Both the position numbers and the translations under genes were made by a program. A DNA stretch of 64,000 nucleotides from Oscillospiraceae bacterium (lineage in GTDB: Bacteria > Bacillota > Clostridia > Oscillospirales > Ruminococcaceae). The first letter of the stretch is position 1. Every line of letters begins with the position of its first letter. The stretch covers positions 26,542 through 90,541 of the forward strand of contig JAAWDH010000040.1 in assembly GCA_022793675.1 (NCBI GenBank), in the 5' to 3' direction. This document shows positions 2,104-57,985 of this stretch, in pieces. The notes under the pieces are model-generated. The model was given only the letters and a program-made list of their open reading frames with translations. It made no database searches and was not told the origin of the DNA.

Positions 2104-2179
2104 TGTCTAAATTGTTAATTTTCCGCCATATCCATCTAGAGGATGGTTTTTTGTTTATTTATTTGGAATTTATAAGGAT

Positions 2180-2554
2180 GGAGCGGCTGCGGCCGCTCCT
2201 TCATTAAAATCGGGTTTCGCCCCGATATGACGACCTACTCTGTTGTCACGCGACAACAGAGTAGGCAGAAAAACGCGCCCGAGGGAAGTGTCCCTCAGGG
2301 CTCCCTCAGACGAACGGGGCGTTTATGCGGCCTGTTTTGTGATACCCCGCTGCCGTTTTGCTGCGGAAGCTGATGGCGCTTACCTCCCCGCTAGGGGATT
2401 GTACGGATTTTAGCAGGCGGGCGGCCGCGCCTTACTTGGCTCCGGAAGTACGGATGCGTCCTTAGGGGAGGTTGGCGGGGAATCGGGAAAGGCCGTGCGC
2501 ACGGCCTTCGCGCTGCTTACGCAGCGCGTCATAGCGGGGCGCTTCGCGCCCCGC
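2180..2554 (+). repeat. 375-bp structured intergenic element, copy 1
   Basis: A non-coding block packed with perfect stems: 2180-2187/2192-2199 (8 bp), 2209-2214/2221-2226, 2234-2247/2252-2265 (14 bp), GAGGG/CCCTC near 2281, GGCCGTG/CACGGCC near 2491, GCGCTGC/GCAGCGC near 2510, and GCGGGGCG/CGCCCCGC at 2534-2554. A second copy of the same length lies at 33716-34090 on the other strand, at roughly 90 percent identity, and two stems differ by paired compensatory changes. Weaker similarity continues about 35 bp upstream of both copies. No protein reading frame is conserved. Function unknown: structured RNA or mobile palindromic element. Confidence 0.85.
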
Positions 2555-2764
2555 CCGCGTAAAGGTGAAGCTGGGTATAAAAACGGAAATTAGAAACGTG
2601 AAGGGGGAAATCCGATGCGCACGGACGTTGTGCCATGGGGAAGCGACGGCGTAATTTGCCTAATGCGGCGAATAAAGCGGAACGGAGCATTCTGCCCGAC
2701 GGTAGGACGTATCTGTGGGAACTCGCATTTCCCCTTTGGGCAAATGCGAGTCGCAAAAAAAGGG

Positions 2765-2793
2765 TTGACAAATGGGAAATGATGGTGTATAAT
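2765..2793 (+). promoter_or_regulatory. Promoter of choline-kinase fusion operon
   Basis: Consensus TTGACA, exactly 17 nt, TATAAT. About 75 nt of leader separate it from the ATG at 2869. A 10-bp stem (ACTCGCATTT/AAATGCGAGT) lies just upstream at about 2719-2749. Confidence 0.85.
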
Positions 2794-6604: not shown

Positions 6605-6875
6605 TCAGCCGTTCCGGAGTCGCGGCTGGTTAGTGGTATCGACGCAGTAGGCGGCTATAGCAGAGCAGACGACTACCCTGGCGATTAAAAGTTTTTGCAG
6701 CTTAGCTTTGTTAAGCTACAGCTTGTCGAAAAAACTCCATGTTTTCCTAAGATTGACAAGGATTGGGATTCTCAAGGGGCGCGCCCCTTGAGCGGGTCCA
6801 GGGCAGCGCCCTGGTCGCCCTCCTCAGAGGGCGAAATCCCTTCAAAAAGCGCGTACTCTCCGTACTCCCGTCCCC
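6605..6875 (-). repeat. Mosaic repeat block (core plus GTAC tract)
   Basis: Reads as the reverse of the family core: TATCGACGCAGTAGG near 6638, then TACCCTGGCGATTAAAAGTT near 6675, AGCTTAGC-type arms, and after an inserted palindrome cluster, TTTTTGAAGGG/AAAAAGCG and GTACTC tracts at 6841-6872. It fills the gap between the choline operon and the HAD gene and truncates the antitoxin remnant. Confidence 0.75.
6771..6834. repeat. Three consecutive perfect palindromes
   Basis: A 22-bp gapless palindrome (6771-6792), then CCAGGGC/GCCCTGG (6798-6814), then TCGCCCTC/GAGGGCGA (6815-6834). They sit inside the mosaic repeat block and are not followed by a T run. Confidence 0.8.
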
Positions 6876-10352: not shown

Positions 10353-10433
10353 GTCGCTTTTGAAAAAGCTCCGCAAAACTTTTAATCGCCAGGGTAGCTG
10401 TCAGCACAGATTGGCACGCCTACTGCGTCGATA
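10353..10433 (+). repeat. Mosaic repeat core, copy
   Basis: GTCGCTTTTGAAAAAGCTCC ... CTACTGCGTCGATA, 81 bp. Repeated almost exactly at 10532-10611, about 100 bp further on. Confidence 0.85.
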
Positions 10434-10479
10434 GCTATTACTGACCAGCCGCGACAGAAACGCTGTGGGTTTTTATGTC

Positions 10480-10611
10480 AGAAATCCGGCTTGCTGGATT
10501 TCCGGCGCGAATTGTCTGCCGGCACAACCGGCCGCTTTTGAAAAAGCTCCGCAAAACTTTTAATCGCCAGGGTAGCTGTCAGCACAGATTGGCACACCTA
10601 CTGCGTCGATA
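10480..10611 (+). repeat. Mosaic repeat: hairpin module plus core
   Basis: Begins with AAATCCGGCTTGCTGGATTT and CGCGAATTGTCTGCCGGC modules also seen near 29.1, 43.0 and 46.8 kb, then a second core copy at 10532-10611 that differs from the first at two positions. Confidence 0.8.
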
Positions 10612-15739: not shown

Positions 15740-16290
15740 GTTAGGAACTGATTCTTCTTATGCCCGGACAATTCACTGGATTGTCCGGAGAAATGAAAAG
15801 TTCTGTTCTGTCGTATTATGGAGCTACGCTCCATACGAGGACCCCTCGGGAGGGTCCTCGAGCTCTCCTGCCCTTTTTTTGGAAGGAGAATTTCGCCCTC
15901 GGCGGAGGGCGACCAGGGGGCTCTGCCCCCGGCCCCCGCGATTTTTTGAAAAAAATCGAGTAAAACTTTTTTCGCCCGGGCCACTATGTGCAAAGCCATA
16001 AATTCCTACTGCGTCGATAAATGTTTCTGGTTCTGCGCATCGACGCAGTAGGCGGCCGGCTGTGCCGGCAGACAATTCGCGTTTGCCGCCTAGCTCTGCT
16101 CGGCGGCTTGTGAGCGAAAAACATCGCGTGAGATGTCGCGGCTGGTCAGTGGTACCGACGCAGTAGGCGGCTATAGTGAGGTAGGCGAGTACCCTGGCGA
16201 TTAAAAGTTTTTGCTAAGCTTTTTTCAAAAAGCGCGTACTCCCGTACTCCTCGTAACTCCCGTACCCTTCGTACCCCCGTACTCCATCTG
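15740..16290 (-). repeat. Mosaic repeat block inside the phage-like operon
   Basis: Reverse-orientation copy of the hairpin-rich module (GCCCGGACAATTCACTGGA near 15762, GAGGACCCT/AGGGTCCTC near 15837-15860, CGATTTTTTGAAAAAAATCG near 15940), then CTACTGCGTCGATA with its inverted partner, the CGGCTGTGCCGGCAGACAAT module, a core copy and GTACTC tracts to 16285. No gene is present in this 580-bp gap. Confidence 0.85.
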
Positions 16291-27282: not shown

Positions 27283-27560
27283 GTACGAGGGGTACGAGGA
27301 GTACGAGGGGTACGGGAGTACGGTCGCTTTTGAAAAAGCTCCGCAAAACTTTTAATCGCCTGGGTACACGTCAGCATAGATTTGCACGCCTACTGCGTCG
27401 ATACGCAGAACCAGAAGACTTGTCGATGCAGTAGAATTTAATGATAAGATACGCGCGTGTCCTGGCGAAAAAAGTTTTACTCGATTTTTTCAAAAAATCG
27501 CGGGGGCGAGCTTTCCACAGCAAGCGAAATCCCTCTTCAAAACATTCCGCGTAGGTGAAG
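27283..27560 (+). repeat. Mosaic repeat block between baseplate and fibre genes
   Basis: Tandem GTACGAGG-type octamers (27283-27322), core copy GTCGCTTTTGAAAAAGCTCC to CTACTGCGTCGATA (27323-27403), a degenerate inverted partner, then CGATTTTTTCAAAAAATCG (27482-27500). The rest of the 376-bp gap to 27658 shows no gene. Confidence 0.85.
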
Positions 27561-29095: not shown

Positions 29096-29099
29096 CCGG

Positions 29100-29335
29100 C
29101 TGTGCCGGCAGACAGTTCGCGGCGGCGTGTCGCCGCAGACAATTCGCGTTTGCCGCCTGGCGCTGCTCGGCGGCTTGTAAGCGAAAAACATGACGTTTGG
29201 TGTCGCGGTTGGTAACAGCTTTCGACGCAGTAGGCGGGTAAAGCTGTGCTGCCAAGTACCCTAGCGATTAAAAGTTTTTGCTAAGCTTTTTTCAAAAAGC
29301 GCGTACTCTCGTACCCCCGTACTTCCGTACTCCTG
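29100..29335 (-). repeat. Mosaic repeat block after the phage-like operon
   Basis: CCGGCTGTGCCGGCAGACAG, CGGCGGCGTGTCGCCGCAGAC, a core copy in reverse orientation (CGACGCAGTAGG near 29222, TACCCTAGCGATTAAAAGTT near 29255) and GTACTC tracts. It fills the gap to the next promoter; no terminator with a T run is visible. Confidence 0.8.
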
Positions 29336-33672: not shown

Positions 33673-33715
33673 AATATATCACACCTTTTTTATGTTTACT
33701 TTGTTGTAGATTGCG

Positions 33716-34090
33716 GCGGGGCGCGAAGCGCCCCGCTATGACGCGCTGCGTAAGCAGCGCGAAGGCCGTGTGCACGGCCTTTCCCGGTTCCGCGCCAACC
33801 TTCCCTAAGGGCACATCCGTACTTCCGGAGCCAAGTAAGGCGCGGCCGCCCGCCTGCTAAAGTCCGTACAATTTCCTAGCGGGGAGGTAAGCGTCGCGGG
33901 CTTCCGCAGCAAAACGACAGCGGGGTACTGTGGGACAGGCCGCATAAACGCCCCGTTCGTCTGAGGGAGCCCTGAGGGATACTTCCCTCGGGCGCGTTTT
34001 TTTGCCTACTTTGTTGTCGCGTGACAACAAAGTAGGTCGTCATATCGGGGCGAAACCCGATTTTGATGGGGGAGCGCCCGCAGGCGCTCC
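33716..34090 (-). repeat. 375-bp structured intergenic element, copy 2
   Basis: Same length and same order of stems as 2180-2554, in the opposite genomic orientation but in the sense of pheST transcription. Stem GGAGCGCC/GGCGCTCC replaces GGAGCGGC/GCCGCTCC of copy 1 (a G-C pair flipped to C-G), and CCTACTTTG/CAAAGTAGG replaces CCTACTCTG/CAGAGTAGG (C-G to T-A). Located within the pheS-pheT intercistronic gap, so it should be transcribed with the operon. Bases 34091-34140 and 33673-33715 hold nothing else recognisable apart from the pheT ribosome site. Confidence 0.88.
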
Positions 34091-34140
34091 TTCCTTATTA
34101 TTCCAATCAAAAAACCAAACAATAAGGAAACCAGAAACAA

Positions 34141-35203: not shown

Positions 35204-35467
35204 AAAAAGGCCTCCGTCCCCAATTGGGACGAAGGCCAGAAACGGCATCCGTGGTACCACCCAAATTTTCCCTGTACAAAAAGCGCACAGAAAACACTCG
35301 CTGCCCCATAACGGAGGCGATCCGTCGCCCCCTACTCCTATCGTTCAGGGACGCCGCTCACAAGGGAAATTTCACCGTTTCCGGTCAGCGGGACGGGCTT
35401 TCAGCCGGTGGCCTGTCTTCTCTGACGCCCCGGAAGGGCTACTGTACTTGGTCGTCGCGTTTTATTA
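35204..35467 (-). promoter_or_regulatory. T-box leader of pheST (tRNA-Phe responsive)
   Basis: Minus-strand leader with the conserved T-box GGTGGTACCACGGAT (35247-35262) directly before a terminator hairpin GGCCTTCGTCCC...GGGACGGAGGCC (35209-35237) and a T run (35204-35208). Antiterminator and terminator are mutually exclusive as in classic T-boxes. A UUC triplet in the upstream stem region (35366-35368) is a candidate Phe specifier; this placement is less certain. Confidence 0.92.
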
Positions 35468-35799: not shown

Positions 35800-36110
35800 T
35801 CGACGGAGGTACGAGGGGTACGGGGAGTATGGTCGCTTTTGAAGAAAGCCAAGCTTAGCTTTGCTAAGCTCGCTTTGCTAAGCTCGCAAAACTTTTAATC
35901 GCAAGGGTACTAGCTGGCACAGATTTGCACGCCTGCTGCGTCGATAGGGTTTAACCCTCAGGCGCTGCGTCGACAGCGTTTTCGAAAAAAAAGGGGAGGC
36001 GGCTCCGCAGAGCCAGAGGGGTTCAAAGGATGAATATAATGCCACATACATTCAGCGCCTTCATGCTGAATGCTAGGATAACTCCAATGAATTGTCCGGG
36101 CCTAAGAGGT
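35800..36110 (+). repeat. Mosaic repeat block
   Basis: GTACGAGGGG tract, core (GTCGCTTTTGAA, GCAAAACTTTTAATCGC near 35890, CTGCGTCGATA near 35937), AGCTTAGC arms, then the module ending TGCTGAATGCTAGGATAACT and AATTGTCCGGGC (36063-36102). No gene between 35761 and 36166. Confidence 0.8.
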
Positions 36111-42464: not shown

Positions 42465-43092
42465 CACGGAGGTACGGGGGTACGGAGAGTACGAGAGTAC
42501 GCGCTTTTTGAAAGAAAGCCTAGCTTAGCAGAGCTAAGCTGCAAAAACTTTTAATCGCCCGGGTAGTCGTCTGCTCCGCTATAGCTACCTACTGCGTCGA
42601 TACGCAGAACCAGAAACACTTATCGACGCAGTAGGATTTAATGGTGAGATACGCACGTCCCCTGGCGAAAAAAGTTTTACTCGATTTTTTTCAAAAAATC
42701 GCGAGTCCTAGCTTTCGTCAAGCCGAAAGCTGGCAGAGCCCTCGGTCGCTTGCCGCAGCAAGCGAAACCTCCTTCCAAAAAAAGGGCAGGAGAGCTCGAG
42801 GACCCTCCCGAGGGGTCCTCGTATGGGCTCACAAACGTTATGGAGGAGCAACCACGCAAAAGAATGCGAAGCATTCTTTCAGCATTCAGCACCTTAGTGC
42901 TGAATGCTAGGACAACTCCGGTGAATTGTCCGGACATAAAGAGTAAAAACGCATTGTTTTTATTTGGAACCACCTACCCGTAACCGCGAGAGAACCGGCC
43001 ATGTCTATCCGAAGCAGAAATCGGGCTTGCTCGATTTCCGGCGCGGACAGTCTGCGGGCACAGCCCGTCGCGAATAGTCTGCGGCGACACGC
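42465..43092 (+). repeat. Large mosaic repeat block
   Basis: GTACGGGG tracts, core, CCTACTGCGTCGATA with its perfect inverted partner (about 42588-42632), then a run of hairpins: CGATTTTTTTC/GAAAAAATCG, AGCTTTCG/CCGAAAGCT, GCTTGC/GCAAGC, GAGGACC/GGTCCTC, AGAATGC/GCATTCT, CAGCATTCAGCAC/GTGCTGAATGC, and the CGGCGACACGCCG module at the end. Much of it recurs near 15.8 and 57.8 kb. No gene in 42405-43196. Confidence 0.85.
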
Positions 43093-45789: not shown

Positions 45790-45912
45790 CGAGAGGTTAC
45801 GGGAGTACGGTCGCTTTTGAAGAAAGCCAAGCTTAGCAGGGCTAAGCTCGCAAAACTTTTAATCGCCAGGGTAGTCGTCAGCACCAATTTACACGTCTAC
45901 TGCGTCGGACAC
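45785..45912 (+). repeat. Mosaic repeat, core copy
   Basis: GGTTACGGGAGTACG tract, GTCGCTTTTGAAGAAAGCC, AGCTTAGC arms, GCAAAACTTTTAATCGCCAG, CTACTGCGTCGGA. Confidence 0.85.
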
Positions 45913-45932: not shown

Positions 45933-46766
45933 ATGGATAGGAAAGCAATGGCCAGGGAAACGCTGGCGATTATGGAACAGGGATATTACGAGCTTGGCAG
46001 CTCCGGCCAACGGATTGCCGTCAAAGAGGATATGGAGCGGTCGCTTAAAGGCAGCCGGCTGATTTCCCCAACAGAAGGGGAGGAGCTCCTTGGAAAGTAC
46101 CGCGTATGCGCAGGCTGCCGCCAGCCAGAGTCGCGGGTCGGGAACCTGCCCACTGTCGAGGCTGTTCGGACGCTTGCGGCAGAAGGGAAGGAGGGCATCG
46201 GCGTGCTGAACTTTGCCAGCGCGAAAAACCCGGGCGGCGGGTTCCTGAACGGGGCGATGGCCCAGGAGGAAAGCCTTGCCGTTTCCAGCACCCTTTACCC
46301 CACCTTGACGGCGCACGAGGAATATTACCGCGAAAATCGCGCCCACAGCTCGATGATGTATCTGGACTATGCGATTTATTCGCCGGAGGTCGTGTTTTTC
46401 CGCGACGGGGCTTTCCAGCTGACAGAAAAGCCCGTAAAAGCGTCTGTGCTAACGCTTCCGGCGGTTAATATGGGCCAGGTAATCCTGAAAAAGGAAAATG
46501 CTGCGGAGGCCAAAAAGGTTATGCGCCGCCGGATGAAGCTGGCGTTGGGGATTTTTGCCGAACAGCAGGCCAAACATCTGGTGCTTGGGGCGTATGGCTG
46601 CGGCGTTTTCGGAAACGACCCCCAAGAGATTGCGGCCTGGTGGAAAGGGCTTCTTACAGAGGGGATGGGGCAGTATTTCGATTCCGTCTTTTACGCCGTT
46701 TTAGACCATTCCAGAAGCCAGAGCTGTATAAAAGCTTTCCAGAAGGCCGGCTATGCCGGCAGATAA
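45933..46766 (+). CDS. Bacterial-type poly(ADP-ribose) glycohydrolase-like macrodomain protein (TIGR02452 family)
   Basis: 277 residues. The PARG catalytic signature GGG-(6-8)-QEE is explicit in NPGGGFLNGAMAQEESL (about residues 98-114), with the macrodomain strands VGVLNFASAKN before it and LVLGAYGCGVFGNDPQEIA after it. Bacterial PARGs remove ADP-ribose from proteins or nucleic acids. No ADP-ribosyltransferase gene is next to it. GGAGG lies 6 nt before the ATG. The last codons (GYAGR) run into the mosaic repeat, so the natural C-terminus may have been replaced. Confidence 0.88.
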   Translation: MDRKAMARETLAIMEQGYYELGSSGQRIAVKEDMERSLKGSRLISPTEGEELLGKYRVCAGCRQPESRVGNLPTVEAVRTLAAEGKEGIGVLNFASAKNPGGGFLNGAMAQEESLAVSSTLYPTLTAHEEYYRENRAHSSMMYLDYAIYSPEVVFFRDGAFQLTEKPVKASVLTLPAVNMGQVILKKENAAEAKKVMRRRMKLALGIFAEQQAKHLVLGAYGCGVFGNDPQEIAAWWKGLLTEGMGQYFDSVFYAVLDHSRSQSCIKAFQKAGYAGR

Positions 46767-46855
46767 TTCGCGGCGGCGTGTCGCCTCAGACAATTCGCGG
46801 CGGCGTGTCGCCTCAGACAATTCGCGGCGGCGTGTCGCCGCTGACAATTCGCGTC
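46762..46855 (+). repeat. 27-bp tandem repeat, about 3.5 units
   Basis: Units at 46762-46788, 46789-46815 and 46816-46842 plus a partial. Each is GACAATTCGCGGCGGCGTGT then CGCCTCA. Single-unit relatives occur in the repeat blocks near 29.1 and 43.0 kb. No spacers, so not CRISPR. Confidence 0.9.
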
Positions 46856-46859
46856 GGAA

Positions 46860-47040
46860 ATCCAGCAGGCCGGATTTCTGGCATAAAAACCACAACGTTT
46901 CTGTCGCGGCTGGCAGCGTTTTCGACGCAGTAGGCGGGCTAATTTGTGCTGGCAGGTACCTTGGCGATTAAAAGTTTTGCGAGCTTAGCTCTGCTAAGCT
47001 TGGCTTTCTTCAAAAGCGACCGTACTCCCGTACCCCCGTA
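46860..47040 (-). repeat. Mosaic repeat, core copy in reverse
   Basis: AATCCAGCAGGCCGGATT module, CGACGCAGTAGGCGGG, TACCTTGGCGATTAAAAGTT, AGCTTAGC arms, then GTACTCCC tracts to the lgt promoter. Confidence 0.8.
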
Positions 47041-57669: not shown

Positions 57670-57985
57670 ATAAGAGAACGGGGGTACGAGGAGTACGGTC
57701 GCTTTTGAAAAAGCTCCGCAAAACTTTTAATCGCCAGGGTACCCGTCGGCATAGCTTTACCCGCCTACTGCGTCGATAGGGTTTAACCCCTCAGTCGCTG
57801 CGGCGGGCCCCAAGCTTTCGCAGAAAGCTGGGGAGGCTAAAGCTGCCCGAATGGGAACCAGTGAGCGTTGGAGAAGCCCCTGCCTCCCCTGAAAGGGGAG
57901 GTGGCTCCGCAGAGCCGGAGGGGTTCAAAACCTTAGTGCTGGATGCTAGGACAACTCCAGTGAATTGCCCAGGCATAAGAACACT
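57670..57985 (+). repeat. Mosaic repeat block
   Basis: GGGGGTACGAGGAGTACG tract, core (57695-57780, ending CCTACTGCGTCGATA), AGCTTTCGCAGAAAGCT hairpin, a CCCCTGCCTCCCCTGAAAGG hairpin, and the TGCTGGATGCTAGGACAACT/AATTGCCCAGGC module (57938-57975). No gene in the 580-bp gap. Confidence 0.82.

What the first reader, a model, noticed from the sequence alone, without database searches (positions are those of the whole stretch)
2180..2554. A 375-bp hairpin-rich element occurs twice with compensatory stem changes
Copies at 2180-2554 (+) and 33716-34090 (-) have the same length and order of about seven stems. One stem reads GGAGCGGC/GCCGCTCC in one copy and GGAGCGCC/GGCGCTCC in the other. Another reads CCTACTCTG/CAGAGTAGG versus CCTACTTTG/CAAAGTAGG. 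Both are double changes that keep pairing, so the fold itself appears to be under selection. No protein frame is shared. One copy is inside the pheS-pheT gap, sense to that operon; the other precedes the choline operon. It may be a structured RNA, an mRNA-processing or attenuation element, or a non-autonomous mobile element.
Basis: seen in the sequence. Interest (0 to 1): 0.85.

Follow-up and report, generated by a model that had tools for sequence, protein, structure and literature searches.

The report
Mobile repeat with triple-helix pseudoknot
This 375-base stretch is one of about twenty scattered copies in one bacterial genome, so it is likely a mobile element, and it carries a version of a hairpin, found also in distantly related bacteria, along whose stem the trailing bases are predicted to lie as a third strand.

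Summary
In detail: two 375-bp copies, 92% identical, both double stem changes real. They belong to a dispersed family: 20 left-part matches in this genome, orientation to genes even (9 sense, 9 antisense), no significant match in 13 congeners, and no element between pheS and pheT in 8 congeners. Stems vary far less than the rest (9/126 vs 83/250 columns).

Hairpin H3 (2234-2265) is a version of one found in distant bacteria. Across 55 deduplicated hairpins the 3' tail follows a mirror rule: G opposite a C-G pair, A opposite T-A (0 of 5000 permutations). Sequence after the tail tends to pair with the loop (30/55 with >=4 bp; permuted 7.2; reversed-tail control 19). This suggests an H-type pseudoknot with a third strand. 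Beyond those three bases this element's own tail does not follow the rule.

Most likely a non-autonomous mobile element whose pseudoknot would be a recognition handle. RNA versus single-stranded DNA, enzyme and function are not shown; attenuator or leader roles are not supported. No Rfam match.

The parts
2157..2554 (+). element copy A (type 1), with its AT-rich left end 2157-2179
33716..34106 (-). element copy B (type 1), between pheS and pheT
2180..2199 (+). hairpin H1; pair 2186:2193 differs on both sides between copies
2209..2226 (+). hairpin H2
2234..2265 (+). hairpin H3 (stem 2234-2247/2252-2265, loop 2248-2251); pair 2240:2259 changed on both sides in copy A
2266..2273 (+). tail of H3, predicted third strand; base 2268 changed together with 2240 and 2259
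2275..2277 (+). GCG, predicted to pair with loop bases 2249-2251 (pseudoknot helix); prediction for this copy, not tested within the family because both sides hardly vary
   Evidence: sequence; family-wide test
2277..2301 (+). hairpin H4; with the adjoining T-run terminator-like on the minus strand
2302..2488 (+). variable core with possible long-range pairing
2489..2554 (+). hairpins H5, H6, H7 (right end)
33991..34036 (-). H3 and tail in copy B (unchanged form at 34030, 34011, 34002)
2765..2793 (+). promoter-like site between copy A and the choline-type genes

Best explanation
The element is one of about twenty dispersed non-coding copies and is likely a non-autonomous mobile element, and its hairpin H3 with the adjoining tail is predicted to form an H-type pseudoknot with a third strand, which would serve as the recognition handle of an unidentified mobilising enzyme. 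Shown: dispersal, absence of close matches in the sampled relatives, even orientation, near-invariant stems, the cross-species tail rule, and an excess of loop-downstream complementarity. Inferred: that the tail physically lies in the groove of the stem; that this happens in RNA, most likely copied from the element's minus strand, where the tail becomes a 5' pyrimidine strand able to make U.A-U and C+.G-C triples across a one-base linker, as in telomerase RNA pseudoknots; and that an enzyme acting in trans uses the fold to copy or move the element. My split: dispersed mobile element 0.85; base-matched third strand 0.75; RNA rather than DNA 0.55; minus strand if RNA 0.65; handle for mobility rather than another role 0.5.
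For: 20 left-part matches in one genome, none significant in 13 congeners, pheS-pheT without element in 8 of 8 congeners read, even orientation. Stem columns 9/126 variable vs 83/250; double changes. H3 in other genera, plasmid records and IMG/VR contigs, multi-copy in G418 (17), G461 (17), G475 (7) with a backward-pattern control of at most 3 per genome. Tail rule: 156/222 vs 93.6 permuted, 0 of 5000; one hairpin per locus 0 of 20000; without CTT/TTT/TTC stems 61/110 vs 34.9, 0 of 5000. Triple change in copy A and variants in L444 and L261. Loop helix: 30/55 with >=4 bp vs 7.2 permuted. Gene orientation of the wider set even (20/20, 18/21).
Against: In this element the rule holds only for the three bases of the fixed triplet: the next stem base is G, where the family shows no rule (tail A in 9 of 9 such hairpins). 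The reversed-tail control of the loop helix is also high (19 of 55), so part of that excess is composition; in the own family the loop helix cannot covary, and one diverged copy (L197) breaks it. The hairpin set was gathered with patterns that fix TACTTT, AAAGTA and mostly CAAA. In one search three of six entries whose tail starts with C do not match. Linker base C in 15 of 19 hairpins, not all. No promoter inside copies A and B, and the minus strand holds terminator-like sites at the T-run, which speaks against a long minus-strand RNA. No mobilising gene found; no target duplication or terminal repeats recognised. No RNA data.
Confidence: 0.45

Rival explanations
1. The fold works in single-stranded DNA: a hairpin with a purine tail folding back as a mirror-repeat triplex, bound by a recombinase or replication protein when the strand is exposed.
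For: Mirror purine repeats are what DNA triplexes need (review passages); wobble pairs are rare with no strand bias; even orientation to genes; no promoter inside copies A and B.
Against: No Y1 transposase in the held genome; copies A and B lie in opposite orientation on one contig, so no strict replication-strand bias; a loop-downstream helix is more usual for RNA pseudoknots (recalled).
Confidence: 0.27
2. A structured RNA kept for a host function: a small RNA or an mRNA stability or termination element that happened to spread.
For: Strong predicted fold on both strands; terminator-like sites on the element's minus strand; stems conserved between diverged copies.
Against: Even orientation to genes; absence of close matches in congeners; copy A upstream of a promoter-like site; no Rfam family.
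Confidence: 0.15
3. A passive palindromic repeat: the double stem changes come from palindrome correction or exchange between copies, and the tail rule is a by-product of purine-rich sequence.
For: Both H1 alleles occur in both element types, pointing to exchange between copies; only two or three double changes exist in the own-genome set; tails are A-rich anyway.
Against: Palindrome correction cannot change the tail in mirror order, yet it changed in copy A and follows the stem in unrelated bacteria; 160 non-hairpin pattern hits show no rule; rarer stems alone still show it.
Confidence: 0.09

Closest known systems
Mobile/repeat sequence candidates (MRSC) of the 50-genome ncRNA survey, PMC11109978 (passages read)
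   Same: Structured, many copies per genome, inconsistent orientation to genes; the survey counts 250 and describes MRSC-65-2 (over 20,000 representatives, a single long stem, UYCCGG)
   Different: MRSC-65-2 has other conserved bases and no tail rule is mentioned in the passages; the other candidates are in a supplement I could not read, so this hairpin may be listed there
Bacillus cereus repeats bcr1-bcr18 (PMC6542083 and PMC3446304, passages)
   Same: 100-400 bp, intergenic, dispersed, lineage-restricted; some with conserved secondary structure; TTTAT motif tied to mobility
   Different: No sequence comparison made; H3 here recurs in other phyla
REP/REPIN with RAYT transposase (listings only)
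   Same: Dispersed intergenic palindromes
   Different: No Y1 transposase found in the held genome; the element is 375 bp with seven hairpins
ERIC, RUP, Correia and other small mobile sequences (PMC2229807 abstract and outline; PMC2267715 abstract and discussion)
   Same: Non-autonomous, hairpin-forming, mostly intergenic
   Different: No terminal inverted repeats recognised here
Telomerase RNA pseudoknots with a pyrimidine triple helix (PMC4689454 passages; details recalled)
   Same: H-type pseudoknot with a pyrimidine strand matched to the purine arm of a stem, if the minus strand is read
   Different: Inferred from sequence only; bacterial; no sequence relation claimed

Membership tests
any Rfam 15 family | covariance-model score at or above gathering | tested here: not met
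   none on the window; none on 13 relatives' loci; with lax E-values no family covering the hairpin reached its gathering score
REP/REPIN-RAYT and IS200/IS605-derived elements | Y1 (HUH) transposase in the genome | tested here: not met
   PF01797: 0 hits in the held genome, control rings in 5 of 14 genomes; the assembly is 98.8% complete and breaks at repeats, so a lost gene is possible
IS91/Helitron-like (Y2) | Y2 transposase in the genome | tested here: inconclusive
   PF04986: 0 hits, but no control rang either
MITE of a DDE transposon | terminal inverted repeats | tested here: not met
   left and right ends differ, judged by eye
MITE of a DDE transposon | target-site duplication | tested here: inconclusive
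   none recognised by eye in flanks; no empty site close enough to align
ORF-less group II intron | intron RNA domains | tested here: not met
   no intron family on the element, while the same library finds one on L228
mobile/repeat sequence candidate (MRSC) | multiple copies per genome and inconsistent orientation to genes | tested here: met
mobile/repeat sequence candidate (MRSC) | frequent association with transposase or integrase genes | not tested
   neighbouring genes were not annotated by family
H-type pseudoknot with base-matched third strand | third strand matches the purine arm (A with A-T, G with G-C; or T and C on the other strand) | tested here: met
   for the hairpin family; for this element only over the fixed triplet
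H-type pseudoknot with base-matched third strand | loop pairs with sequence beyond the third strand | tested here: inconclusive
   30/55 with >=4 bp vs 7.2 permuted, but reversed-tail control 19; in this element 3-4 bp predicted
H-type pseudoknot with base-matched third strand | fold shown by probing or structure | not testable with these tools
   -
bcr repeats | TTTAT at the insertion site | tested here: inconclusive
   TTTAT-like stretches in the left end of many copies; none noticed at the right end
5' leader attenuator or riboswitch | fixed position and sense orientation before genes | tested here: not met

The most novel reading that the evidence does not exclude
A pan-bacterial class of selfish elements is marked by a telomerase-like pyrimidine triple-helix pseudoknot in RNA and moves through that RNA: a bacterial counterpart of SINEs whose enzyme reads a base-triple code rather than a primary sequence.
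Probability: 0.16. Interest if true: 0.95.

Novelty: new variant of a known kind. Interest (0 to 1): 0.74.

Why it matters
Dispersed hairpin repeats are usually set aside as palindromes. Here a third strand shows up in plain sequence comparison: a mirror rule between hairpin and tail that holds in unrelated bacteria and that is met by a third change inside the window, in a copy that was not part of the statistics. If it is a real triple helix, it gives a searchable signature for a class of elements not found in Rfam 15 here, a way to look for the enzyme that recognises them, and a bacterial system in which triple-helix pseudoknots can be mutated and tested.

Tried and rejected
Rejected: riboswitch or attenuator (orientation, promoter position); group II intron remnant (no intron domains on the element; the one reverse-transcriptase hit of the genome is an intron elsewhere); REP-RAYT and IS200/IS605 as present driver; known RNA family; the tail as a direct repeat re-pairing with the 5' arm (my first idea, note; the mirror order and the slid controls fit better with a third strand).

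Led nowhere: Y2 transposase search; exact-pattern scans with the element's own H2-H3 sequence (0 hits); plasmids and phages with the whole element (no match); the hairpin in E. coli genomes (no match) and phage records (partial, weak); paper searches by topic and by sequence strings; two searches gave comparison papers. The strand test by wobble types stayed undecided. pheS-pheT gaps in named records: 51 of the 80 loci were measured, median 28 nt, 6 of 51 above 300 and not examined.

Selection behind the tail statistics: hairpins come from patterns that fix TACTTT and AAAGTA and, in all but one search, CAAA; searches also fix a purine in the tail, searches do not; 253 distinct pattern hits = 70 hairpins (at least 3 further perfect pairs), 160 controls (0-1) and 23 between; 70 reduced to 55 by equal stem and tail, from 49 loci; some loci are still related (for example L248, L253, L255; L233, L237). 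IMG/VR contigs may be host DNA. In one search, 10 plasmid records matched at E<=1; only three (Subdoligranulum, Caballeronia, Parabacteroides) were read in sequence. The ORF callers are simple and unverified.

Full report
1. The observation. Copy A folds better than all 100 shuffles on either strand. No Rfam family matches the window at its gathering score.

2. A family, not a pair. In the genome of the window (G000; 2.73 Mb, 58 contigs) BLAST with copy A gives 22 matches, one of them the palindrome against itself. The left 124 bases give 20 matches of 84 bases or more, besides that palindrome and one 25-base hit. Eight are near-full type 1 elements, three type 1 copies are cut by contig ends, and nine are of a second type that shares the AT-rich left end and H1-H3 but has another right part. 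The right part of type 2 and the region after copy A (2555-2766) recur elsewhere, so the genome is a mosaic of hairpin-rich intergenic repeats. In the 13 other genomes of the genus only stretches of 15-28 bases match at E<=1; in a looser search of 148 family genomes only the own one matched (few candidates per genome were scored). The closest named relatives by PheT are an Oscillospiraceae assembly (77%) and Candidatus Merdivicinus species (68-71%). In the 8 congeners whose pheS end was read, pheT follows within some tens of bases without the element (a ninth, partial hit was left out). Around the own copies the upstream neighbour is sense in 9, antisense in 9 and missing in 3 of 21 places. 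This fits a mobile element and not a leader.

3. Stems. On 8 near-full copies 9 of 126 stem columns vary against 83 of 250 others (Fisher p 5e-9), and against 18 of 63 loop and linker columns (p 2e-4). Of 63 pairs, 3 changed on both sides, 1 varies on one side and 1 is broken in one copy. In H1-H3 of 20 copies, 2 of 28 pairs changed on both sides; the one unpaired cell lies at the cut end of a truncated copy. The H1 change occurs in both element types, so it was exchanged between copies or arose more than once. RNAalifold finds 5 of 119 pairs with double changes but a covariation term of +1.18, that is no net support over the whole length, and breaks in the core; both strands score alike.

4. 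The hairpin is not confined to this species. A covariance model of H1-H3 (R1) finds 12 of 396 family genomes at E<=0.01, own included. Its E-values are rough and about four chance genomes are expected at that level, but G294 has 8, G335 3, G321 and G089 2 matches each. Many of these share H3: TACTTT or a near form, a stem, AAAGTA, two bases, CAAA; others (for example L236) do not look related. The hairpin was read in plasmid records of Subdoligranulum, Caballeronia and Parabacteroides and in IMG/VR contigs. In 391 genomes of the class the pattern TACTTTN{4,34}AAAGTANNCAAARA occurs in 31; many single hits have no real stem, but G000 has 19, G418 17, G461 17 and G475 7, and the same pattern read backwards gives at most 3 in a genome. 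The inner stem differs between species and stays complementary.

5. The tail rule. Counting once per genome or contig, the base after CAAA is G in 24 of 24 hairpins whose next stem base is C and A in 10 of 10 where it is T and 3 of 3 where it is G (tail limited to A or G in that set). With sets that leave the tail free added, 70 hairpins give C->G 39 of 39, T->A 20 of 21, G->A 9 of 9, A->A 1 of 1; 199 matches in the first five positions against 121.9 (sd 7.0) in permuted pairings, 0 of 2000 reaching it; 160 non-hairpin pattern hits show no such link. After deduplication to 55 hairpins from 49 loci: 156 of 222 against 93.6 (sd 6.3), 0 of 5000; sliding the tail by one to four bases gives 87, 54, 53 and 56 of 222. 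In positions 2-6 alone, C versus T predicts G versus A (Fisher p 1e-13), while G versus A predicts nothing (p 0.29). One hairpin per locus: 0 of 20000; without CTT/TTT/TTC stems (28 hairpins): 61 of 110 against 34.9 (sd 4.5), 0 of 5000. So the tail repeats the purine arm in mirror order where that arm is purine, and not where it is pyrimidine. That is the code of triple helices: a purine third strand, or on the other strand a pyrimidine third strand, both needing mirror symmetry (review passages). The linker base before AAA is C in 15 of 19 hairpins where it was left free.

6. The window supplies a separate case. Copy A is not in the statistics, because the patterns fixed TACTTT. A scan of the 3.69 million bases held for TAC...GTA hairpins with other triplets gave 30 entries, most of them palindromes read on both strands. 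Six have a tail that starts with C: L444 (5 of 5 mirror bases), L261 (4) and copy A (3) match, L309 minus and L136 on both strands do not; L309 plus, starting with T, matches 3. In this element the next stem base is G and the tail there does not mirror it, as in the 8 other G-stem forms.

7. The loop helix. The sequence after the tail is complementary to the hairpin loop: longest helix 3.62 bp on average against 2.61 (sd 0.11), and 30 of 55 with at least 4 bp against 7.2 (sd 2.5; maximum 16 in 1000 permutations). A reversed-tail control gives 3.13 and 19, so part of the excess is shared composition of loop and tail within a locus. L248 and L255 show a matched change (loop GCGT with AACG, loop GCAT with AATG), while a relative in L253 breaks it. 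With the stem this makes an H-type pseudoknot whose connecting strand is matched to the stem. In this element: stem 2234-2247/2252-2265, loop ACGC, tail 2266-2273, partner GCG 2275-2277; the diverged copy L197 has another loop and loses it.

8. Strand and molecule. On the plus strand the tail is a 3' purine strand; on the minus strand it is a 5' pyrimidine strand followed by one G and then the stem. The latter is, as I recall it, the topology of telomerase RNA pseudoknots, where a pyrimidine loop lies in the deep groove of the next stem; that a pyrimidine-rich triplex exists in K. lactis telomerase RNA was read. I therefore lean to RNA from the minus strand. Nothing here shows transcription. 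No promoter-like site is inside copies A or B, and the minus strand has terminator-like sites around the T-run, which could end such an RNA early. Wobble pairs are rare with no strand bias, and single-stranded DNA could fold the same way.

9. What it does. 46 of 55 hairpins of the wider set are intergenic and neighbours are sense and antisense alike (20/20 upstream, 18/21 downstream). With the multi-copy pattern this fits a handle of mobile elements better than a regulator. The enzyme is unknown: no Y1 transposase, an uninformative Y2 test, and one reverse-transcriptase hit, in a group II intron that carries a stop.

10. Novelty. Repeats of this general kind are well known; a 2024 survey counts 250 mobile/repeat sequence candidates (PMC11109978, passages). 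I found no description of the mirror-matched tail in the searches, nor a family in Rfam 15, but subscription papers and supplements were out of reach. I file it as a new variant of a known kind.

Noticed in passing
window 6637-6715, 10355-10611, 16046-16234, 27325-27403, 29098-29301, 35880-35948, 42536-42602, 42965-43078, 45844-45907, 46765-46986, 57700-57780; also L192-L211: A second, far more numerous repeat (module M): 36 matches of its 90-base part in 273 kb of stretches (not a random sample), often with a tail of CGTACTCC-like octamers of varying length and sometimes as head-to-head pairs. A 321-base form gives 59 matches in the own genome and none in 13 congeners.
   Followed up: partly
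L201-L207 (type 2 copies): Nine copies share the left end and H1-H3 but continue into another hairpin-rich right part, which is joined to module M in several places.
   Followed up: partly
window 2555-2766 (+): The region after copy A is itself repeated, with and without the element in front of it.
   Followed up: partly
window about 35222-35464 (-) (L003 3007-3249): T-box leader match before pheS, 92.6 bits against a gathering score of 93.
   Followed up: no
L228 (G000 contig C54): A group II intron with a TAG inside its reverse-transcriptase frame, the only RVT_1 hit in the genome.
   Followed up: partly
window 33697-33707 (-): Just outside the right end of copy B, ACAACAAAGTA repeats part of the 3' arm of H3; perhaps a remnant of another copy (by eye).
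   Followed up: no
L265, L266, L268 (IMG/VR contigs of about 179 kb): Before the hairpin lie short AT-rich near-tandem repeats, unlike the flanks elsewhere.
   Followed up: no
L548-L562 (G461, G418): Two other Clostridia genomes carry about 17 copies each of the hairpin with different stems, in one genome with both tail forms matched to their stems.
   Followed up: partly
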